From: Actinomycetospora sp. NBRC 106378 | Lineage (GTDB): Bacteria > Actinomycetota > Actinomycetes > Mycobacteriales > Pseudonocardiaceae | Assembly (NCBI RefSeq): GCF_030269685.1 | Contig: NZ_BSTT01000008.1 | Span: forward strand, 186,001 to 250,000 | Direction: 5' to 3' | DNA length: 64,000 nucleotides | Part shown: positions 2,016 through 59,865 of the stretch, piece by piece | How the letters are laid out: each line of letters opens with the position of its first letter | Numbering within the stretch: position 1 is the first letter of the stretch | Notes under the pieces: model-generated | What the model was told of the DNA's origin: nothing | What the model saw: the letters and a program-made list of their open reading frames with translations, nothing else | Databases searched by the model: none | Position numbers and translations under genes: made by a program

Positions 2016-2020
2016 CCCGG

Positions 2021-2140
2021 ACGTCAGCCGTGTGCCACCGCTGACACCGGGCGTCAGCCGTGTGCCACCGCTGACACCGGACGTCAGCCGTGTGCCACCG
2101 CTGACACCGGACGTCAGCCGTGTGCCACCGCTGACACCCC
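2021..2140. repeat. Four tandem copies of a 30-bp palindromic unit at a convergent junction
   Basis: The unit ACGTCAGCCGTGTGCCACCG plus CTGACACCGG repeats four times with an exact 30-bp period (starts 2021, 2051, 2081, 2111); the only differences are a G for A at the start of copy 2 and divergence at the end of copy 4. Each unit contains a hairpin, GTCAGC-c-GTG-tgc-CAC-c-GCTGAC. The array fills the gap between the convergent genes ending at 2015 and 2150, so it can act as a bidirectional terminator. A diverged inverted copy lies at 20683-20720, showing that the unit is dispersed. Confidence 0.9.
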
Positions 2141-2149
2141 GGGGCGAAC

Positions 2150-3136
2150 TCAGAGGCCCGTCAGCCCCCGCGCCACCCCCACGGCCGCCGACACCCCGCG
2201 CACCGGCGAGAACCGGTCGGAGGCCTCGTTCAGCGCCGTCCACTCGTCGGGCGCCAGGACGATCTCGGCGGCCGCGCAGTTGCTCTCCAGCTGCTCGACG
2301 CTCGACGCACCCGGGATGGCGACCACCTCGGGGCGGTGGATCGTCCAGGCCAGCGCGACCTGGGAGGGCGTCGCGTCGTGCGCGGCCGCCACCTCGCGCA
2401 ACGTGTCGATCAGCGGCTGGGCGCGGCGCAGCGACTCGGGCAGGAACAGGGTGTTCATCTGCCGGACCCGGTTCGACGGCCGGTGCTCGGCATCGAACTT
2501 CCCGGAGAGCAGGCCCTGCGCGAGCGGGCTGTAGGCGATGACCGCACGGCCGGCCTCGGCCGCGTAGGGCAGGAGCTCCCGCTCCGGGTCGCGCGAGACC
2601 AGGCTGTAGGAGACCTGGTTCGAGATCACCCGCGAGCCGAGCGCGCTCTCGGCGTCCTGCCAGCGGTCGAGGGAGTAGTTCGACACCCCGACCTCGTCGA
2701 CCACCCCGGCGGCCTGGAGCGTCCGCATCCCGGGCATGGTGCGGCGGTCGCCGATCAGCGGGTTGGGCTGGTGGACCTGGTAGAGGTCGAGCGGGCGGCG
2801 GACCCGGCCGGAGCTCGCGACCCCGCGCTGCTCGACGACCGGTGCCACCGGGAACACCGGGAACACCTTGGACGCGACGACGGTGGTCGCCGGGTCGGCG
2901 TCCGCCCGGTCGAGCGCGTCGCCGAGGATGCGCTCGCTGCGGCCGAAGCCGTAGACCTCGGCGGTGTCGAAGACGGTGATCCCCAGCTCGAGGGCCCGCC
3001 GGACGATCCGCGCGGCCTCCGAGTCGGGGCCCGAGGTGTAGTCGCCGCCGTAGCCCCACTCGTTCGACCCGAACTGCCACGTGCCGAGCCCGATGGCCGA
3101 CCAGCGCTTGGTGGTCGGCAGCTCCAGATAACGCAT
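2150..3136 (-). CDS. Aldo/keto reductase
   Basis: 328 aa, a full-length member of the NADPH-dependent aldo/keto reductase TIM-barrel family. The catalytic tetrad is visible: Asp57 and Tyr62 in FDTAEVYGFGRSERILG, Lys near residue 90 in VVASKVF, and His near 122 in YQVHQPNP. The nucleotide-binding end AIPGASSVEQLESNCAA is also present. It resembles the AKR subgroup with MRYLELPTTKR-like N-termini that reduce assorted aldehydes and ketones; the substrate cannot be assigned. The ATG at 3136 begins the conserved first strand. It lies 9 nt downstream of the glycosyltransferase stop at 3146 on the same strand, so co-transcription with the glycosyltransferase pair is likely. Confidence 0.9.
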   Translation of the reverse strand: MRYLELPTTKRWSAIGLGTWQFGSNEWGYGGDYTSGPDSEAARIVRRALELGITVFDTAEVYGFGRSERILGDALDRADADPATTVVASKVFPVFPVAPVVEQRGVASSGRVRRPLDLYQVHQPNPLIGDRRTMPGMRTLQAAGVVDEVGVSNYSLDRWQDAESALGSRVISNQVSYSLVSRDPERELLPYAAEAGRAVIAYSPLAQGLLSGKFDAEHRPSNRVRQMNTLFLPESLRRAQPLIDTLREVAAAHDATPSQVALAWTIHRPEVVAIPGASSVEQLESNCAAAEIVLAPDEWTALNEASDRFSPVRGVSAAVGVARGLTGL

Positions 3137-10784: not shown

Positions 10785-11522
10785 ATGAGTGGAGCACTGG
10801 ACGGCGTGGTCGCGGCGGTCACCGGCGCGTCGAGCGGGATCGGCGAGGCCACCGCGCGGGCGCTCGCGGCCGAGGGGGCGACGGTGGCCCTGCTGGCCCG
10901 TCGTCGGGAACGCCTCGAGGAACTCGCGCGCGAGCTCGGGACCGCGACCACGGTCCACGAGGTGGACGTGTCGGACGCGGAGGCGGTCGCCTCCGCGGTG
11001 GAGGACGTCGTCGCCCGGCACGGGCATCTCGACGTGCTCGTGAACAACGCGGGCTACGGGACGATGACGCCGGCGGCCGAGGCCGACCTCGCCGAGTGGC
11101 GGACGATGGTCGACGTCAACGTGAACGGCGTCCTCGCCACCACCCACGCGGCGCTCGGGCACCTGACGAGCGCCGCGTCCGGGGAGCGCGGGGTCGCCGA
11201 CGTCGTGACGATCTCCTCGGTGGCCGGGCGCAAGGTCTCGGGCCCGGCGGTGAACGTCTACGCGGCGACGAAGCACGCGGTCGGTGCCTTCTCCGAGGCG
11301 CTGCGCCAGGAGTTCGCGGCCGCGCACGTGCGGGTGGGGCTCGTGGAGCCGGGTCTGGTGCGCAGCGAGCTGACCGAGGGCAACGACGCCCTCGGCGAGG
11401 TCGGGGAGCTCGGCGTGATGGAGGCGGCCGACATCGCCGACGCCGTGGTCTACATGGTCACGCGGCCGCGGCGGGTGGCCGTGAACGAGATCCTCGTCCG
11501 CCCGATCGAGCAGACCCGCTGA
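10785..11522 (+). CDS. Short-chain dehydrogenase/reductase, YdfG-like
   Basis: 245 aa. The Rossmann motif TGASSGIGEA is near residue 14, NNAG follows near 85, and the catalytic Ser and YxxxK are in ISSVAGRKVSGPAVNVYAATK. The C-terminal VVYMVTRPRRVAVNEILVRP is typical of the YdfG / serine 3-dehydrogenase type that oxidises beta-hydroxy acids or reduces small ketones. A close paralogue is at 32902-33651, sharing for instance EADLAEWR-type, AGRKV and VYAATKH blocks. ATG 10785 is used; GTG 10779 is in frame just ahead. Substrate unknown. Confidence 0.88.
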   Translation: MSGALDGVVAAVTGASSGIGEATARALAAEGATVALLARRRERLEELARELGTATTVHEVDVSDAEAVASAVEDVVARHGHLDVLVNNAGYGTMTPAAEADLAEWRTMVDVNVNGVLATTHAALGHLTSAASGERGVADVVTISSVAGRKVSGPAVNVYAATKHAVGAFSEALRQEFAAAHVRVGLVEPGLVRSELTEGNDALGEVGELGVMEAADIADAVVYMVTRPRRVAVNEILVRPIEQTR

Positions 11523-18653: not shown

Positions 18654-18681
18654 TTCGCGTCGGGTCCCGCGCCCCCTGTGT

Positions 18682-18840
18682 GAGGTGCACGCCAGGCACG
18701 TCGGAGCGCGCTCGCGGCTGCCTCACGTGACTCTCGCGCCGGCGGCGGCTGGGAGTCATCGGCCCGCCGTCTCCGCGAGGTGCACGCCAGGCACGCCGGA
18801 GGGCACTCGCGGCTGCCTCACGTGACTCTCGCGCCGGCGG
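18682..18840. repeat. Two direct copies of a 64-bp intergenic repeat
   Basis: Copies at 18682-18745 and 18777-18840 differ at only three of 64 positions. Each starts GAGGTGCACGCCAGGCA and ends CGTGACTCTCGCGCCGGCGG. Each is itself an imperfect palindrome (GAGGTGCAC..AGGCA at the left, TGCCTCACGTGACTC at the right). They occupy the convergent gap between copC and the L,D-transpeptidase gene, between that gap's two terminators. More diverged members lie at 20746-20804 and 20830-20889. Confidence 0.85.
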
Positions 18841-20641: not shown

Positions 20642-20682
20642 GAGGTGAGGTGGCCTCCGGCCTCCCGAGCGCTGGGGCCCGA

Positions 20683-20745: not shown

Positions 20746-20889
20746 GCGAGGTGCACACCAGGCATCCTCCGGGGCCGTCCGACCTGCGCTGAGTGCCACT
20801 CGCGAACGCGAGCGCCGCCGCTTCCGGCCGCGAGGTGTGCACCAGGCAGGATCGCGGGCCTCCGAACCTGCCCTATGTGCCACTCGCGG
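20746..20889. repeat. Two diverged palindromic repeats; the second overlaps a gene end
   Basis: Elements at 20746-20804 and 20830-20889 begin GCGAGGTG(T)GCACACCAGGCA-like and end with TGCCACTCGCG. They are related to the 64-bp repeats at 18682-18840 in their GAGGTGCAC..CAGGCA start. The arms are complementary (GCGAGGTGCAC against GTGCCACTCGC), so each is an imperfect palindrome. The second supplies the TAG stop and the last three codons of the pseudouridine synthase gene at 20873. Confidence 0.7.
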
Positions 20890-27732: not shown

Positions 27733-27789
27733 GTGACAGGAAAGCGTCGTTGCTGCCACCGGACGACAGCAACGACGCTTTCCTGCCAC
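27733..27789. repeat. 57-bp palindromic repeat A, copy 1 (convergent junction)
   Basis: Left arm 27733-27755 (GTGACAGGAAAGCGTCGTTGCTG with one change from consensus; first 20 nt GTGACAGGAAAGCGTCGTTG), 11-nt loop, right arm 27767-27789. It lies between the VOC gene ending at 27721 and the FAD monooxygenase gene ending at 27797, so it can act as a two-way terminator. Confidence 0.92.
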
Positions 27790-32901: not shown

Positions 32902-33651
32902 CTACCGTTCCTGCTCGGTGGGGCGCACGAGCATCTCGTGGACGGCCACCCCGCGGGGGCGGGACACCATGTAGACGACGGCGTCGGCGATGGCCGCGGG
33001 ATCGAGCGCCCGGTACTCGGAGGCGCCCCGGGCGTCCGGGGCGAACTCCGCCCCGCTCGTGGTCATCTCCGAGGTGACGATGCCGGGTTCGACGAGTCCG
33101 ACGCGGACGTGCCGCTCCGCCAGCTCCACCCGCAGCGCCTCGGAGAAGGCACCGACGCCGTGTTTGGTGGCCGCGTAGACGTTGCTCGCCGGCCCCGGGA
33201 CCTTGCGGCCCGCGATGGAGCTGATCGACACGAGATCGGCCACCCCGCGCGGCCCGGTGGCCGCCTCGACCAGATGCGGCAGCGCCGCGTGGCTGGTGGC
33301 GAGCACGGCGGTGAGGTTGACCTCGACCATGCGCCGCCACTCGGCGAGGTCCGCGTCCAGGGCGGGCGACCAGGCGCCGTAGCCGGCGTTGTTCACGAGG
33401 ACCCCGATGCCGCCGTGGTCCGCGGCGACCCGGTCGATCGCGCCGCGGACCGCATCGTCGTCGGTGACGTCGGCCTCGATCGCGACCACGGCGTCGCCCA
33501 GTTCGGCGGCGAGTGTCTCCAGCCGGTCCCGACGGCGGGCGAGCGCGGCCACGGTTGCGCCATGCGCCACCAGCGCGCGCGTGACGGCCTCGCCGATCCC
33601 GCTCGACGCCCCCGTCACCACCGCGGTCGTCCCCTGCAACCGATCACCCAT
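32902..33651 (-). CDS. Short-chain dehydrogenase/reductase, paralogue of the gene at 10785
   Basis: 249 aa. VTGASSGIGEAVTRALVAHG, VLVNNAGYGAWSP, catalytic ISSIAGRKVPGPASNVYAAT then K, and VVYMVSRPRGVAVHEMLVRP. Very similar along its whole length to the SDR at 10785-11522, so the two arose by duplication. YdfG-like NADP oxidoreductase; substrate unknown. ATG 33651. It is separated by 62 nt from the methyltransferase-MTHFR fusion gene upstream, which is on the same strand and may be co-transcribed. Confidence 0.88.
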   Translation of the reverse strand: MGDRLQGTTAVVTGASSGIGEAVTRALVAHGATVAALARRRDRLETLAAELGDAVVAIEADVTDDDAVRGAIDRVAADHGGIGVLVNNAGYGAWSPALDADLAEWRRMVEVNLTAVLATSHAALPHLVEAATGPRGVADLVSISSIAGRKVPGPASNVYAATKHGVGAFSEALRVELAERHVRVGLVEPGIVTSEMTTSGAEFAPDARGASEYRALDPAAIADAVVYMVSRPRGVAVHEMLVRPTEQER

Positions 33652-33713: not shown

Positions 33714-35642
33714 TCACGACCGACCGCCGACACCCGCCGCCGTGAGCACCCGGCCGAGACGGGTGACCGCCTCGCCGAGCAGGGCGGGCGGACCGGGGCG
33801 CCGCACGACGATGCCCTCGACCAGGCCCTCGGCCAGGGCCTCGGCCGCGAGGTCCGCGGCGAGGTCCAGGCCCGGGGCCGGGTCCTCACCGGCCGCGCGG
33901 ACGCGGGCCAGGACGTGGTCGGGCAGCACGACGTCGGGCACCTCGTGGGCCAGGTGCTCGGCCTCCGCGTACCCCGAGAGCGGGGCGAGCGAGAGCAGGA
34001 CGGGGACCTTCGTCCCGATCCCGCCGAGCACCCGGCGGAGCCGGTCGAGCTCGTAGACCGGGCGGGTCACGAGGAACTCGGCGCCCGCCTCCACCTTGAG
34101 CCGGACCCGGTGCATCTCGCGCTCGAGGTCGTCGGTGCCCGGGGTCACCCGCACCCCCACGCGGAAGGGCGCGGGCGCGAGCCGCAGGCCGTCCGTGTCC
34201 ACCCCGGCCGCCAGCGACGCGGCCAGCCCGACCAGGCCCACCGCGTCGACCTCCCACACCCCGTCGCGCACCGCGCGATCGGCGTGCACCGGCGGGTTCC
34301 CGGTCTCGGTGACGATCGTGTGCAGCCCGAGGGCGTCGAGCCCGAGCAGGTCGGCCTGCAGGGCCATCCGGCTGCTGTTCCAGCTGGTCACGGTGCACGC
34401 GACGTCTGCGTCGAGGACCTCGTGCAGCCCCGCCGCCACCCCGGCCGTCGTGGTCCGGCGGCGGCGTGTGCGCTCCCGGCCGGCCCACAGTGCCGCCGCT
34501 CCCGCGGCGAGCGCGGCGCGCCCGCGGGCGACGTGCACGTCGAGGTCGTCCGCGCCCGGGGCGGTCACCTCCGCGACGAGCAGCGGGGTGCGCCGTGGTG
34601 CGTCCAGCCAGCGGGCGACGGCGCCGCGGCCGGGGCCCTCTGCTCGTGCCGTCGGTGGCAGGAAAGCGTCGTTGCTGTCATCCCGTGACAGCAACGACGC
34701 TTTCCTGCCGGCGGGGAGGGGGAGGGGCGCTGCCACGGGCTCGTCCACGACGGGGCCCCGCGACAGCTCCGCCGCGGCGGCCGCCACGTGCGCGGGCGTG
34801 GTGCCGCAACAACCCCCGACGAGCCGGGCGCCCGCCGCCACGTACCGCGCCGCGTAGCGCCCGAAGTGCGCGGCGTCGGAGGCGAAGCGGACGCTCCGGT
34901 CGGACACGACGTGGGGGAGCCCGGCGTTGGGCAGGGCGGTCACCGCGATCCCGTCCGGCACGGCTGCCACGAGCCGGCGGACGACCGTCAGCAGGCCCTG
35001 CGGCCCGAGCGTGCAGTTCGTGCCGAGGGCGACCGGACCGAGCGCCCCGACGACGCGCGCGACCTCCTCGGGGGTCTCCCCGAGCGTCGTCACCGGCCCG
35101 CCGTCCTCCTCGACGAACGTCGCCTGCGCGATCACCGGCAGGTCGGTCGCCTCGCGGACGGCCAGGACCGCCTCGGCGAGCTCCTCGGCGTGGGCGAACG
35201 TCTCGCACACCAGCAGGTCCACCCCGCCCTCGGCGAGCGCGGCGGCCTGCTCGCGGATCGCGGCACGGACGGCGGACGGTTCGACCGGCCCCGCGAGTCG
35301 CGGCGACGTGGCGGGCGAGATCGAGCCCGCGACGAAGGCCGGACGGGCGGTGTCGTCGCGCGCCTCCCGGGCCAGCCGCGCGGCGTCGACGTTGATCTCG
35401 TGGACGCGGCGCGCCAGGCCGTGGCGGGCCAGACGCAGGCGGCTCGCGCCGTAGGTGTGGGTCTGGATCAGCTCGGCCCCGGCGTCGAGGTAGCGCCGGT
35501 GCAGGGCTCCGACCAGCTCGGGCGCGAGCAGCACGAGCTCGCTCACCGCGCCCTCGGCGCGGGCCCCGGTCGCCTGCGCCAACGTGCCCATCGCGCCGTC
35601 GCCGAGCAGGGTGCCCGCGGCGAGGGCCTCCGCGACGTTCAC
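33714..35642 (-). CDS. Bifunctional homocysteine S-methyltransferase / methylenetetrahydrofolate reductase fusion
   Basis: 642 aa from GTG 35642. The N-terminal domain (1-300) is a zinc-dependent homocysteine methyltransferase: LLGDGAMGTLAQATGA, ELIQTHTYGASRLRL, the zinc Cys in ALGTNCTLGPQGL and the Cys pair in LVGGCCGTTPAH. The C-terminal domain (about 345-640) is a MetF-like TIM barrel: VAEVTAPGADDLDVHVARG, WNSSRMALQADLLGLDALGL, GAEFLVTRPVYELDRL. This is the YitJ-type fusion that makes methyl-THF and passes the methyl group to homocysteine. The linker (residues 312-329, GRKASLLSRDDSNDAFLP) is encoded by an intact copy of the 57-bp palindromic repeat. The start overlaps the PucR stop (GTGA). 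Confidence 0.9.
   Translation of the reverse strand: MNVAEALAAGTLLGDGAMGTLAQATGARAEGAVSELVLLAPELVGALHRRYLDAGAELIQTHTYGASRLRLARHGLARRVHEINVDAARLAREARDDTARPAFVAGSISPATSPRLAGPVEPSAVRAAIREQAAALAEGGVDLLVCETFAHAEELAEAVLAVREATDLPVIAQATFVEEDGGPVTTLGETPEEVARVVGALGPVALGTNCTLGPQGLLTVVRRLVAAVPDGIAVTALPNAGLPHVVSDRSVRFASDAAHFGRYAARYVAAGARLVGGCCGTTPAHVAAAAAELSRGPVVDEPVAAPLPLPAGRKASLLSRDDSNDAFLPPTARAEGPGRGAVARWLDAPRRTPLLVAEVTAPGADDLDVHVARGRAALAAGAAALWAGRERTRRRRTTTAGVAAGLHEVLDADVACTVTSWNSSRMALQADLLGLDALGLHTIVTETGNPPVHADRAVRDGVWEVDAVGLVGLAASLAAGVDTDGLRLAPAPFRVGVRVTPGTDDLEREMHRVRLKVEAGAEFLVTRPVYELDRLRRVLGGIGTKVPVLLSLAPLSGYAEAEHLAHEVPDVVLPDHVLARVRAAGEDPAPGLDLAADLAAEALAEGLVEGIVVRRPGPPALLGEAVTRLGRVLTAAGVGGRS
34655..34709. 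repeat. Palindromic repeat A, copy 2, in frame inside a coding gene
   Basis: Left arm 34655-34677 matches the consensus GTGGCAGGAAAGCGTCGTTG-CTG exactly; loop 34678-34688 (11 nt); right arm 34689-34709 complementary over 21 nt. It is read on the minus strand without a frame break as Gly312-Pro329 of the methyltransferase-MTHFR fusion, between the two catalytic domains. Confidence 0.93.
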
Positions 35643-37636: not shown

Positions 37637-37689
37637 ATGGCAGGAAAGCGTCGTTGCTGTCAGCCAGTGGCAGCAACGACGCTTTCCTG
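37637..37689. repeat. Palindromic repeat A, copy 3 (convergent junction)
   Basis: Left arm 37637-37659 (ATGGCAGGAAAGCGTCGTTG-CTG), 11-nt loop, right arm 37671-37689 (CAGCAACGACGCTTTCCTG); the outer four positions of the right arm have decayed. Between wrbA (ends 37630) and the ABC permease gene (ends 37704). Confidence 0.92.
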
Positions 37690-37703: not shown

Positions 37704-38510
37704 TCAGTCCAGCGCGCGCCGCACGAACCCCCGGATCCCGATGGCCCCGAACAGCACGCACGCGAACACCAGCGCCGCGAGACACAGCCACGCCGGCAGG
37801 TGCGGGATCTGCGGGGTCAGCGCGCCGCGCAGACCCTCCGCCACGTACGTGATCGGGTTCAGCGCGCAGATCACCTGGAACCAGCGCAGCGACCCGATCT
37901 GCAGGAACGGGAACTGCGTGGACCCGGTGAACAGCAGCGGCGTGATCACCACGGCGAACACGATGTTGATCCGCCGTGGGCTGACCAGCGTGCCGATGAC
38001 CAGTCCGGACGCGCCGCCCGCGAGCGCCCCGAGCACCAGCAGCAGCGCCGACAGCGGCAGGCCGGCGAGATTCCACGAGACCTCGTCGAGCACGAGGTAG
38101 CCCACCGGGATCATCACCAGCGAGCCGATCAGGCCGCGGATCGCGCCGAACACGATCTTCTCGACCGCGACCATCCGCGTGGACAGCGGCGCGAGCAGCC
38201 GGTCCTCGATCTCCTTGGTGTAGCTGAAGTCGATCACCAGCGGCAGCGCGACGGCCTGCACGGCGACGAGGAAAGCGTTGAGCGCGAGCAGGCCCGGCAG
38301 CAGCAGCTGGGCGTAGCCGGGCGCGATGTAGCCGAGCTCGGAGAGGACCTTCCCGAACACGAAGAGCAGGAAGAACGGCTGGACGAGCACCTGCGAGATG
38401 AAGCTGCCGAGCTCCTTGCCGGTGACCGCGACGTCGCGGCCCAGCACTCCGAGGAACGCCCGGCCCGGGGACACGCGGCGGAACGGTTCGGTCGTGGTCA
38501 CGGCGGTCAC
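37704..38510 (-). CDS. ABC-2 type transporter permease
   Basis: 268 aa from GTG 38510, which overlaps the ATPase gene stop (GTGA). Six hydrophobic helices and the ABC-2 family block LVIDFSYTKEIEDRLLAPLS, VVITPLLFTGSTQFPFLQI and ICALNPITYVAEGLRGAL. Together with the ATPase it forms a DrrAB-like exporter, of the class used for drug, polyketide or lipid export. Substrate unknown. Confidence 0.9.
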   Translation of the reverse strand: MTAVTTTEPFRRVSPGRAFLGVLGRDVAVTGKELGSFISQVLVQPFFLLFVFGKVLSELGYIAPGYAQLLLPGLLALNAFLVAVQAVALPLVIDFSYTKEIEDRLLAPLSTRMVAVEKIVFGAIRGLIGSLVMIPVGYLVLDEVSWNLAGLPLSALLLVLGALAGGASGLVIGTLVSPRRINIVFAVVITPLLFTGSTQFPFLQIGSLRWFQVICALNPITYVAEGLRGALTPQIPHLPAWLCLAALVFACVLFGAIGIRGFVRRALD

Positions 38511-54101: not shown

Positions 54102-55623
54102 GGTCGTGATCGTCGGGTCGGGCTTCTCCGGGCTGGGGCAGGCGCTCGCGCTGCGGAAGGCCGGGATCACCGACGTCGTCATCCTGGAGAAGGCCGACCG
54201 CGGCGTCGGCGGCACGTGGCGCGACAACACCTATCCCGGCTGCGCGTGCGACATCCCGTCGCACATGTACTCGCTCTCGTCCGACCTCAACCCGGACTGG
54301 TCGCGGTCGTACTCCCCGCAGCCGGAGATCCACGACTACCTCGAGCGGCTCGCCGACCGCCACGACCTGCGCCGGCTCGTCCGCTTCTCCACCGAGATGA
54401 CCGGGGCGACCTGGGACGAGGACACGCGCACCTGGACCGTGCACACGACGACGGGCGAGTACCACTGCCGCTTCCTGGTCTCCGGGGTCGGCGCCCTGCA
54501 CCTGCCGTCGACGCCGACCCTGCCCGGCGCGGACCGGTTCCGCGGCGAGACCTTCCACTCCGCGCAGTGGCGTCACGACGTCGACCTGCGCGGGAAGCGC
54601 GTCGCGGTGGTCGGCACCGGCGCGAGCGCGATCCAGTTCGTGCCGCAGATCGCCCCCCTGGTCTCGCAGCTCACCCTGTTCCAGCGCACGCCCGCCTGGG
54701 TGCTGCCGAAGGGCGACCACCCCATCGGCGAGTGGCGCAAGCGCCTGTTCGAGAAGGCGCCGCTGATCCAGCGCGCGTACCGGGGCGCGCTCTACGCCGG
54801 GCTCGAGTCCCGCGCCATCGGCTTCATGAGCCGCCCCGAGCTGCTGCGCCCGGCCGAGTGGGTCGCCCGCAAGCACATCGAGCGGTCCATCTCCGACCCC
54901 GAACTCGTCGACCGGCTCACCCCGCGCTACTCGCTCGGGTGCAAGCGGGTGCTGGTGTCGAACGACTACTACCCGGCCCTCGCGCGCCCGAACGTCGACG
55001 TGGTGTCGAGCGGGATCGCCGAGGTCACCGAGCACGGCGTGATCGACCACGACGGCGTCGAGCACCCCGCCGACGTGATCATCTACGGCACGGGCTTCCA
55101 CGTGACCGACGCCTTCGACGACCTGAGCTTCACCGGCCGCGCGGGGCGCACCCTGCGTGAGACCTGGCGCGAGCTCGGGATGAACACGCACTACGGGATC
55201 ACCGTCACCGACTTCCCGAATCTGTTCCTCCTGCTCGGCCCCAACACCGGCCTCGGGCACAACTCCGTGGTGTTCATGATCGAGTGCCAGGCCCGCTACG
55301 TCGCCCAGGCGATCTCCGCCGTGCACGGCTACGGCTGCTCGGGGCTCGACGTGCGCTCGGAGGTGCTGCAGCGGTCCAACGCGGCCGTCATGGAGCGCCT
55401 GGAGAAGGGCATCTGGACCCGCGGCGGCTGCACGTCGTGGTACCTGGACTCCGCGGGGGTCAACCGGACCATCTGGCCGGGCTTCACGCTGCGGTACTGG
55501 GCCGAGACCCGCCGCTTCCGGCCCGACGACTTCGAGTTCTTCGGTCGCTCGGAGGACTTCGCCGTCCCGACGACGCGGGCGGTTGCCTCGAACGGTCACG
55601 TGCCGGTGTCCGCGCGGGCCTGA
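54091..55623 (+). CDS. Flavin-containing monooxygenase (Baeyer-Villiger type)
   Basis: 510 aa from TTG 54091, with AAGGAAG 8 nt upstream and an overlap with the hydrolase stop. FAD loop VVIVGSGFSGLGQALALRKA, GGTWRDNTYPGCACDIPSHM, the BVMO fingerprint FRGETFHSAQWRHD (FxGxxxHxxxW with R in place of P), NADPH loop VAVVGTGASAIQFVPQIAPL, and FLLLGPNTGLGHNSVVFMIE. It oxidises ketones to esters or hydroxylates. The set of diiron oxygenase, hydrolase and BVMO under TetR control looks like a short catabolic or lipid-modifying pathway. Confidence 0.92.
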   Translation: MFSEVVIVGSGFSGLGQALALRKAGITDVVILEKADRGVGGTWRDNTYPGCACDIPSHMYSLSSDLNPDWSRSYSPQPEIHDYLERLADRHDLRRLVRFSTEMTGATWDEDTRTWTVHTTTGEYHCRFLVSGVGALHLPSTPTLPGADRFRGETFHSAQWRHDVDLRGKRVAVVGTGASAIQFVPQIAPLVSQLTLFQRTPAWVLPKGDHPIGEWRKRLFEKAPLIQRAYRGALYAGLESRAIGFMSRPELLRPAEWVARKHIERSISDPELVDRLTPRYSLGCKRVLVSNDYYPALARPNVDVVSSGIAEVTEHGVIDHDGVEHPADVIIYGTGFHVTDAFDDLSFTGRAGRTLRETWRELGMNTHYGITVTDFPNLFLLLGPNTGLGHNSVVFMIECQARYVAQAISAVHGYGCSGLDVRSEVLQRSNAAVMERLEKGIWTRGGCTSWYLDSAGVNRTIWPGFTLRYWAETRRFRPDDFEFFGRSEDFAVPTTRAVASNGHVPVSARA

Positions 55624-55630
55624 CCCCTCC

Positions 55631-55687
55631 GTGGCAGGAAAGCGTCGTTGCTGTCACCGGGTGGCAGCAACGACGCTTTCCTGCCAC
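55631..55687. repeat. Palindromic repeat A, copy 4 (convergent junction)
   Basis: Perfect 23-nt arms: 55631-55653 (GTGGCAGGAAAGCGTCGTTG-CTG) and 55665-55687. The 11-nt loop TCACCGGGTGG can itself extend the stem. It follows the monooxygenase gene by 7 nt. Confidence 0.95.
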
Positions 55688-55748: not shown

Positions 55749-55785
55749 CTGCCACTGGATGACAGCAACGACGCTTTCCTGCCAC
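55749..55785. repeat. Palindromic repeat A, copy 5, left arm decayed
   Basis: Only the right arm is intact (CAGCAACGACGCTTTCCTGC-CAC, 55763-55785). The loop-like CCACTGGATGA precedes it, but most of the left arm (AGCGTCGTTG) is gone. It lies 60 bp beyond copy 4 and 12 nt from the tesB stop, so one junction has a duplicated element. Confidence 0.85.
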
Positions 55786-55797
55786 GAGGGGCGGGGG

Positions 55798-56676
55798 TCA
55801 GGGCCGCCGACGCCGGATCAGGCCCTCCTGCACGACGCTCGCGACCAGGGTGCCGTCGGCGCTGTAGAGCCGGCCGGTCGCGAGGCCGCGCCCGCCGCCG
55901 GCGTTCGGGGACTCCTGGACGTAGAGCAACCAGTCGTCCGCGCGGAACGGCCGGTGGAACCAGACGGCGTGGTCGAGGCTCGCGAGGCTGACGTCCCGGG
56001 CGGCGGCGCCGCCCTGGACGTGCGGGAACACGGCCGACTCGAGCAACGTCAGGTCGCTGGCGTAGGTGAGCACGCAGACGTGCAGCAGGCGGCCGCCGGG
56101 GGCCGCAGGATCGGGGAGCTCGCCGTCGGCCCGGATCCACACCCGGTTGCGGGGCGGGCGGTCGACGGTGTCGTCCCACGGCGCGTGGTCGACGTAGCGC
56201 ACGTCGAGGGGCCAGGTGAGCGCCTTGCCCGTCGTGGTGAAGGCGGGGCGGTCGGCCGGGACCGGCGGCATGTCCCGGCGGGCCAGGCCGTCGGGTCCCG
56301 GCGTCCCGGGCATCGGCGCCTGGTGCTCCACGCCCTCCTCGGGGCGCTGGAACGACGCCGACATCGTGAAGATGGTCTCGCCGTGCTGCACGGCCGTGAC
56401 CCGGCGCGTCGTGAAGGACCGGCCGTCGCGGGCCCGGTCGACCTCGTAGACGATCGGCGCGAACGGGTCGCCGGGCCGGAGGAAGTAGCCGTGCAGGGAG
56501 TGCACGGGGCGGTCGTCGTCGACCGTGCGGCCGGCGGCCACCATCGCCTGGGCGGCGACCTGCCCGCCGAAGACGCGCAGCAGCGACTCCTGCGGGCTGC
56601 GGCCGCGGAAGATGTCGCGCTCGATGTCCTCGAGGTCCAGGACGTCACCGACGAGCTCGTCGAGGGCCTTGCTCAT
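55798..56676 (-). CDS. tesB: Acyl-CoA thioesterase II (TesB-like)
   Basis: 292 aa from ATG 56676. Double hotdog fold: FGGQVAAQAMVAAGRTVDDD and HSLHGYFLRPGDPFAPIVYE in the first half; ASLDHAVWFHRPFRADDWLL (catalytic Asp) and the end VASVVQEGLIRRR (catalytic Gln) in the second. It hydrolyses medium- and long-chain acyl-CoAs. It is a single gene; the next upstream gene (56714) is on the same strand, 37 nt away. Confidence 0.93.
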   Translation of the reverse strand: MSKALDELVGDVLDLEDIERDIFRGRSPQESLLRVFGGQVAAQAMVAAGRTVDDDRPVHSLHGYFLRPGDPFAPIVYEVDRARDGRSFTTRRVTAVQHGETIFTMSASFQRPEEGVEHQAPMPGTPGPDGLARRDMPPVPADRPAFTTTGKALTWPLDVRYVDHAPWDDTVDRPPRNRVWIRADGELPDPAAPGGRLLHVCVLTYASDLTLLESAVFPHVQGGAAARDVSLASLDHAVWFHRPFRADDWLLYVQESPNAGGGRGLATGRLYSADGTLVASVVQEGLIRRRRP

Positions 56677-59808: not shown

Positions 59809-59865
59809 GTGGCAGGAAAGCGTCGTTGCTGCCACCCAGTGACAGCAACGACGCTTTCCTGCCAC
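59809..59865. repeat. Palindromic repeat A, copy 6 (convergent junction)
   Basis: Perfect 23-nt arms (59809-59831 and 59843-59865) and an 11-nt loop CCACCCAGTGA. It lies between the methyltransferase gene (ends 59797) and the PAP2 gene (ends 59877). Confidence 0.95.

What the first reader, a model, noticed from the sequence alone, without database searches (positions are those of the whole stretch)
34655..34709. The same palindrome captured in frame as a protein linker
Copy 2 lies inside the homocysteine methyltransferase-MTHFR gene, between the two catalytic domains, and reads through as GRKASLLSRDDSNDAFLP (residues 312-329). Neither arm is damaged. It parallels the palindromic elements that insert into genes in Rickettsia. 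Here the element tolerated in coding sequence has the same sequence as putative terminators elsewhere, raising the question of how transcription and translation pass it.
Basis: partly seen in the sequence, partly recalled or inferred. Interest (0 to 1): 0.85.

Follow-up and report, generated by a model that had tools for sequence, protein, structure and literature searches.

The report
Palindromic repeat translated as protein linker
A short hairpin-forming DNA repeat that normally sits just after the ends of genes is also carried, readable as protein, inside several genes of an Actinomycetospora genome, and related species often keep such a repeat at the same place but in their own version of the sequence.

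Summary
Window 34655-34709 is a perfect palindrome (19-bp arms) in frame in a homocysteine methyltransferase-MTHFR fusion gene, residues 312-329, in the linker between the domains. It belongs to a dispersed family: 249 arm matches (up to 2 mismatches) and 48 pattern-matched palindromes in this Actinomycetospora genome; the palindrome pattern is absent from 293 of 297 genomes of the taxonomic family.

The copy is not unique: in 1.245 Mb, 7 of 55 elements lie inside genes and 3 more near called N-termini. Of the other 45, 40 have an arm starting 0-49 nt after a same-strand stop codon.

The main result: sites are old, sequences young. At this linker four related species carry four versions (two different perfect palindromes, an asymmetric unit, a half unit); 12 congeners show none. 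In an acyl-CoA synthetase gene eight species carry elements at the same codons, in lineage-specific versions. Repeat heads are alike within a genome; between species, heads at the same site are only slightly more alike than heads at different sites.

It works like the in-gene palindromes of Rickettsia and REPs, but no RAYT-type transposase was found in 18 genomes of the genus. It is not a clean 18-residue gap, and canonical U-tract termination is not supported.

The parts
34655..34709 (.). palindromic element: two 19-bp arms (34659-34677 +, 34689-34707 -), 11-nt spacer; encodes GRKASLLSRDDSNDAFLP on the minus strand
33714..35642 (-). homocysteine S-methyltransferase-MTHFR fusion gene (642 aa) that carries the element in frame
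   Evidence: orthologues
34767..35609 (-). S-methyl_trans domain, residues 12-292 (PF02574)
33810..34460 (-). MTHFR domain, residues 395-611 (PF02219)
27733..27789 (.). palindromic copy between convergent genes, 15 and 11 nt from the two stop codons
37637..37693 (.). palindromic copy 14 nt after the stop of gene 37704-38510 (-)
55631..55687 (.). palindromic copy 11 nt after the stop of gene 54106-55623 (+)
55749..55785 (-). single-arm (asymmetric) copy 16 nt after the stop of gene 55798-56676 (-)
59809..59865 (.). palindromic copy between convergent genes, 15 and 15 nt from the two stops

Best explanation
It is one copy of a REP/RPE-like family of short repeats. The unit is a 27-nt hairpin-forming 'head' (9-nt stem, 9-nt loop, 9-nt stem). 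Two heads in inverted orientation make the palindrome; one head plus a conserved imperfect complement makes the asymmetric 'solo' form. Copies sit mainly just after stop codons and, less often, in frame inside genes at places that tolerate extra residues. The MTHFR copy entered the linker in a common ancestor of four related species (this genome, A. chiangmaiensis, A. soli and unnamed G005) and is translated as a flexible stretch. Sites are inherited for long times, while the sequence at each site is rewritten towards the version current in that genome, by a copying or drive process that does not depend on the site being a gene end. Shown: the family, its positions, open reading through it, shared sites, lineage-specific sequences, matched arms. 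Inferred: insertion as the origin, the ancestor (from protein identities, no tree built), and rewriting in place as against repeated insertion at a fixed spot. The enzyme is unknown. Ribosomes translating the gene would keep the mRNA hairpin open, and without a U-tract it should not terminate by the canonical route (inference).
For: Family size and restriction. Position: 36 of 84 arms start 10-19 nt after a same-strand stop, against 0.47% of random positions and 2.8% of random intergenic ones; of 45 elements outside genes 31 have an arm at 10-19 nt and 40 at 0-49 nt. In-gene copies: 7 of 55 elements (six genes) with coding sequence on both sides, 3 more near called N-termini; 8 of these 10 in one reading phase. 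MTHFR linker: four versions in four species, no element seen and longest perfect inverted repeat 7-11 in the other 12 of 16. Acyl-CoA synthetase: elements at the same codons in eight species; in the seven of equal length 18-22 of 25 mirrored columns pair, 79% overall, none of 1854 re-dealings of right halves as high (maximum 73%). GGACT-domain gene: elements in five species, empty in two. Heads: mean best identity 0.859 within a genome across loci, 0.795 when species labels are shuffled within loci, 0 of 1000 as high. A small locus signal, 0.785 against 0.769 with loci shuffled within species, 7 of 1000 as high, fits descent in place. Family C: 81 matches in A. termitidis, at most 4 in any other of 18 genomes. 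In-gene arms as intact as the rest: mean 0.29 (17 arms) against 0.33 mismatches (67 arms), among arms with at most 2.
Against: No mobilising enzyme found: no Y1 transposase (PF01797) in 18 of 18 genomes, no shared neighbour sequence among 55 neighbourhoods. No target-site duplication could be defined. The count of pairs changed on both sides at the acyl-CoA synthetase site (11 of 25) does not by itself discriminate: re-dealt halves reached 10, and the axis was chosen to maximise pairing. Rewriting is uneven: G000/G005 heads are almost as alike at the same site (0.886, n=11) as within those genomes (0.897), and for G009/G002 orthologous heads (0.820) exceed within-genome ones (0.784). Phase bias is modest (8 of 10; 5 of 7 if only the safest cases count). 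Repeated insertion at hot spots is not excluded. A. soli has no element at 1 of 9 comparable sites (59813).
Confidence: 0.68

Rival explanations
1. Repeated independent insertion: fixed spots (linkers, gene ends, or an older palindrome serving as target) attract whatever palindrome family is active in each lineage.
For: Different families at the same site; composite B elements look like two units head to head. Precedent: different REPs at about the same site in recB of two Xanthomonas species (PMC3733652, section 15).
Against: At the acyl-CoA synthetase site seven species have the element with the same axis relative to the codons and no indel from it to the LEVGG motif; similar spacers at 172191 in G000 and G005; a small but detectable locus signal in head identity (7 of 1000 shuffles as high).
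Confidence: 0.3
2. DNA-uptake-sequence-like drive: heads are recognised during natural transformation, so uptake bias keeps copies close to the receptor's preferred sequence anywhere in the genome.
For: Lineage 'dialects', inverted pairs associated with terminators and intragenic copies are reported for Neisseriaceae DUS (PMC3630211, passages). ComEC domain in 16 of 18 genomes, this one included. In-gene copies as intact as the rest.
Against: About 250 arms in 6.3 Mb, against thousands of a 10-mer in Neisseria; the head is 27 nt; empty sites lack the whole element, so insertion is needed; ComEC is also present in congeners without this family, so it does not discriminate.
Confidence: 0.12
3. 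U-less (I-shaped) transcription terminators under selection; the in-gene copies are stray.
For: Position just after stop codons, convergent pairs; strong hairpin. Mycobacterial I-shaped terminators within 50 bp of stops are described (PMC12288462, passages).
Against: In-gene copies are equally intact though mid-gene termination would harm; selection for a hairpin does not explain one shared sequence per genome. The same review's reference list also holds a paper whose title says mycobacterial polymerase requires a U-tract, so the U-less mechanism is disputed.
Confidence: 0.3
4. Quasi-palindrome correction: template switching within one hairpin keeps the arms matched and turns solo units into perfect palindromes. 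(Named from general knowledge, no paper read.)
For: Solo unit in G005 and perfect palindromes in this genome and A. chiangmaiensis at the same linker; matched arms at the acyl-CoA synthetase site.
Against: Explains arm matching only, not that unlinked sites share a sequence; solo second halves have their own consensus.
Confidence: 0.25

Closest known systems
Rickettsia palindromic elements (RPE)
   Same: Palindromic repeats translated in frame inside many protein genes, also intergenic; one such protein shown to be made and active (Delihas review PMC2229807, passages).
   Different: RPE 105-146 bp in that review; here a 55-bp palindrome of 27-nt heads, in an actinobacterium, with lineage-specific versions at shared sites.
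CGTC-tagged and GTAG-tagged REPs (PMC3733652)
   Same: Head-to-head dimers, convergent and unidirectional copies within about 20 bp of gene 3' ends, in-gene copies encoding 20-30 residues; CGTC elements also lack a dedicated transposase.
   Different: CGTC families have 8-9 bp stems with 4-5 nt loops and an unpaired CGTC end; here 9/9/9 heads with GCGTC in the loop. The word Actinobacteria does not occur in that paper's main text.
REPINs with RAYT transposases
   Same: Inverted pairs of short repeats, and single copies.
   Different: No Y1 transposase in 18 of 18 genomes of the genus (three of these genomes are 59-84% complete).
DNA uptake sequences (DUS/USS)
   Same: Lineage dialects, inverted pairs at gene ends, intragenic copies.
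   Different: Much longer, far fewer, arrive as whole insertions; no uptake evidence.

Membership tests
RPE (Rickettsia palindromic elements) | palindromic repeat present both between genes and in frame within unrelated genes | tested here: met
RPE (Rickettsia palindromic elements) | sequence homology to RPE families | not tested
   no RPE sequence was compared; the window has no Rfam match at gathering score
RPE (Rickettsia palindromic elements) | absent from orthologues of related species (insertion) | tested here: met
   no element in the MTHFR linker of 12 of 16 genomes; GGACT-domain site empty in G006 and G010, by eye
CGTC-tagged REP | unpaired CGTC end, 8-9 bp stem, 4-5 nt loop, CCA-like tail | tested here: inconclusive
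   27-nt heads pair 9/9/9 with GCGTC in the loop; by eye the palindrome centre alone can be read as CGTC, 10-bp stem, 5-nt loop; the published consensus letters were not seen
CGTC-tagged REP | close to 3' ends of genes, convergent or unidirectional | tested here: met
REPIN/RAYT | associated IS200/IS605-type tyrosine transposase | tested here: not met
   PF01797 in 0 of 18 genomes; 5 of 14 control genomes ring
DUS/USS | sequence-specific DNA uptake | not testable with these tools
   only ComEC presence seen
canonical intrinsic terminator | U-tract after the hairpin | tested here: not met
   longest T run 2 in the 16 nt after 58 palindrome sides
I-shaped terminator | hairpin within 50 bp after a stop that terminates transcription | tested here: inconclusive
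   40 of 45 elements outside genes have an arm 0-49 nt after a same-strand stop; termination itself is not testable here

The most novel reading that the evidence does not exclude
In Actinomycetospora a palindromic repeat family evolves in concert across the chromosome: positions, including positions inside conserved enzymes, persist through speciation, while an unknown copying process (not a RAYT) rewrites the sequence at each position to the current lineage-specific version, so that the encoded peptides of several unrelated proteins change together.
Probability: 0.4. Interest if true: 0.85.

Novelty: new variant of a known kind. Interest (0 to 1): 0.62.

Why it matters
In-gene palindromes are usually discussed as insertions. 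Here the same codon positions can be followed through up to eight species with the repeat present in different versions, in frame. That gives a direct way to ask how REP-like repeats without a known transposase spread and stay uniform within a genome, and it shows unrelated proteins whose linkers are shaped by a DNA-level process. It also warns that such hairpins should not be annotated as terminators from sequence alone.

Tried and rejected
Rejected: an insertion unique to this species (three related species have versions). A clean 18-19 residue gap (linker hypervariable). Far-spaced + and - arms as terminal repeats of a transposon: the pairs that I looked at lie after the stops of separate genes, and no neighbour sequence over 150 bp is shared among 55 neighbourhoods. 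RAYT-mobilised REPIN. A known RNA family: no Rfam match in the window at gathering score. The G005 linker as a merely decayed palindrome: it fits the solo unit consensus.

Led nowhere: literature on Actinomycetospora or Pseudonocardiaceae palindromes (nothing relevant in the listings); REP plus concerted evolution (one irrelevant paper); irrelevant. The structure model of the fusion protein is poor (4-sequence alignment, mean pLDDT 55.9); it shows no helix or strand between residues 295 and 340 and very low confidence there, which fits a flexible linker but proves little. One search failed and one search found nothing (orientation error in my script), corrected.

I had also written that same-site heads are no more alike than others; shuffling shows a small real excess.

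Limits: genes were called by my own codon-usage script, not a published gene finder; start sites are unreliable, so the three N-terminal cases are uncertain. Only 1.245 Mb of 6.31 Mb was surveyed for context; the C8, C9, C13 and C4 stretches were chosen partly because they hold palindromes, C1 (800 kb) is contiguous. Head extraction accepts only heads with GCG[TG]C; 5 of 49 segments gave no head and were left out, and segments over 400 bases were not used. G006 was left out for its different length. Orthologous linkers were judged by eye and by inverted-repeat length. The binomial for phase (8 of 10 in any one phase, about 0.01) is a hand calculation.

Full report
OBSERVATION. The 55 bases at 34655-34709 hold two arms CAGGAAAGCGTCGTTGCTG in inverted orientation around an 11-base spacer, both perfect. 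They lie in an uninterrupted minus-strand gene of 642 codons and are read as GRKASLLSRDDSNDAFLP, residues 312-329. Pfam places homocysteine S-methyltransferase at 12-292 and MTHFR at 395-611. The RNA strand folds into a 24-bp hairpin; the 91-nt stretch has -53.1 kcal/mol, z -8.0.

THE FAMILY. In this genome the arm occurs 124 times on + and 125 times on - with up to 2 mismatches, control 0/0. A degenerate palindrome pattern matches 48 times here and 27, 28 and 27 times in G002, G005 and G009, and in none of the other 14 of 18 genomes of the genus; among 297 genomes of the taxonomic family only these 4 match. In the listed matches, a capped list, the spacer was 11 bases although 6-14 were allowed.

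ANATOMY. Consensus over 58 palindrome sides and 26 solo arms shows a C-rich tract, then GTGG, the arm, and either its reverse complement or, in solo units, a conserved second half close to TCATCCAGTGGCAGGAACGCCGCATCGTCG; a G-rich tract follows the palindrome. Each side of the palindrome can be cut as a 27-nt head with a 9-nt stem, 9-nt loop and 9-nt stem. Other lineages have other heads of the same size: B GTGCAAGCA-ATGCGTCAC-TGCTTGCAC and C GTGTCAGCA-GTGCGGCCA-TGCTGACGT. Family C has 44+37 matches in A. termitidis and at most 4 in any other of the 18 genomes.

WHERE IT SITS. In 1.245 Mb (84 arms with up to 2 mismatches; 29 palindromes and 26 solos) 36 of 84 arms begin 10-19 nt after a same-strand stop codon; random positions do so in 0.47% and random intergenic positions in 2.8%. 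Of the 45 elements outside genes 31 have an arm at 10-19 nt and 40 at 0-49 nt. By element: 19 convergent, 21 tandem, 4 divergent, 7 inside genes with coding sequence on both sides, 3 near called N-termini, 1 at an edge. The seven lie in six genes: the MTHFR fusion, a GGACT-domain protein, an acyl-CoA synthetase (AMP-binding), an FMN oxidoreductase, a family 2 glycosyltransferase, and two solo units in one large gene that I take for an arabinosyltransferase (recalled from sequence, no call). Eight of ten in-gene or N-terminal copies share one reading phase. In-gene arms are as intact as the others (mean mismatches 0.29 of 17 arms, 0.33 of 67).

THE MTHFR SITE. A match exists in 18 of 18 genomes and is full length in 16. 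In 12 of the 16 the linker holds no element that I can recognise and its longest perfect inverted repeat is 7-11 bases. The other four differ from each other: this genome has the A palindrome (24-base perfect inverted repeat); A. chiangmaiensis a perfect palindrome with four changes on each arm, mirrored (19 bases); G005 the solo unit in the antisense direction; A. soli half a unit. All keep the frame open. The element is thus older than the split of these four and younger than, or lost since, their split from A. termitidis. The grouping rests on protein identity (90, 89, 87% against 82% for A. termitidis), not on a tree.

OTHER SITES. The window is collinear with G005, G009, G002, G017 and G010. 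Of the sites on this contig with readable flanks, G005 has an element at 11 of 11, A. chiangmaiensis at 9 of 9, A. soli at 8 of 9 (a half unit and a remnant counted), by my reading. At 37640 A. chiangmaiensis and A. soli carry family B, at 55640 A. chiangmaiensis does; at 59813 A. termitidis carries family C, and A. soli nothing. At C8:131884 G005, A. soli and A. termitidis have a solo unit beyond an extra gene. Inside the acyl-CoA synthetase gene eight species have an element at the same codons (G006 longer and judged by eye). In the seven of equal length 18-22 of 25 mirrored columns pair, 79% overall; no one of 1854 re-dealings of right halves among species reaches that (mean 65%, maximum 73%), and sliding the partner gives at most 36%. 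Eleven of 25 pairs show changes on both sides, but re-dealt halves reach 10, so that count alone proves little; the axis was chosen to maximise pairing. In the GGACT-domain gene this genome and G005 carry A, A. chiangmaiensis and A. soli composite B, A. termitidis a C half; G006 and G010 are empty. In the FMN oxidoreductase gene this genome, G005 and A. chiangmaiensis carry A-type, A. soli B, A. termitidis a C half.

CONCERTED CHANGE. Over 44 of 49 locus-species segments with a recognisable head, mean best head identity is 0.859 within a genome across loci (193 pairs), 0.785 for the same locus across species (66 pairs) and 0.772 when both differ (687 pairs). With species labels shuffled within loci the first falls to 0.795, 0 of 1000 as high; with locus labels shuffled within species the second falls to 0.769, 7 of 1000 as high. 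So a shared genome predicts sequence strongly and a shared position weakly. The effect is strong for A. termitidis (orthologous 0.62-0.67) and weak or reversed for some pairs (G000/G005 0.886 against 0.897 within; G009/G002 0.820 against 0.784).

MECHANISM. The data fit long-lived sites whose sequence is rewritten towards a genome-specific version. Copying between sites, hot-spot reinsertion, and an uptake or binding drive are the candidates. A RAYT is unlikely: no Y1 transposase domain in 18 of 18 genomes, and no repeated neighbour sequence. ComEC is present in 16 of 18 and so does not separate carriers from non-carriers. For transcription: no U-tract follows the hairpins, so a canonical terminator is not supported; U-less terminators are described in mycobacteria (PMC12288462, passages). 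In the MTHFR gene translation probably keeps the hairpin open (inference).

KNOWN WORK. RPEs in Rickettsia genes (PMC2229807, passages) and REPs in coding regions, with the same 3'-end placement and one case of different REPs at about the same site of recB (PMC3733652, passages and section 15), make the basic phenomenon known. DUS dialects (PMC3630211, passages) are the nearest precedent for lineage-specific versions. My searches showed in their listings no report for Actinomycetospora and none of in-place replacement followed across species; listings were capped and the library is open-access only.

Noticed in passing
window 2017-2166: Tandem array of a 30-bp unit (CCGGACGTCAGCCGTGTGCCACCGCTGACA), with a related stretch near 20678; the 15-mer GTCAGCGGTGGCACA occurs 14 times in 1.245 Mb.
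   Followed up: no
G000 sample, 1.245 Mb: Another abundant repeat, GACCCGTCGTCGGGA (43 copies) and variants, is shared with G005, G009, G002 and G017; possibly another hairpin family.
   Followed up: no
window 18670-18840 and 20746-20888: Paired 59-76 bp repeats GCGAGGTGCACGCCAGGCA..., 66-89% alike.
   Followed up: no
L196 (G006), acyl-CoA synthetase gene: The in-gene element of G006 contains AGCACGCCGATAGGG, a 15-mer counted 10 times in the G000 sample; a further repeat family may share the same in-gene site.
   Followed up: partly
window 10811-11513 and 32911-33625: Long inverted pair, 72-77% complementary; the second lies in a gene that looks like a short-chain dehydrogenase (name recalled).
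   Followed up: no
G000 C8:131884: A small gene that stands before the solo unit in G005, A. soli and A. termitidis is missing here, and the unit now follows the next stop codon.
   Followed up: partly
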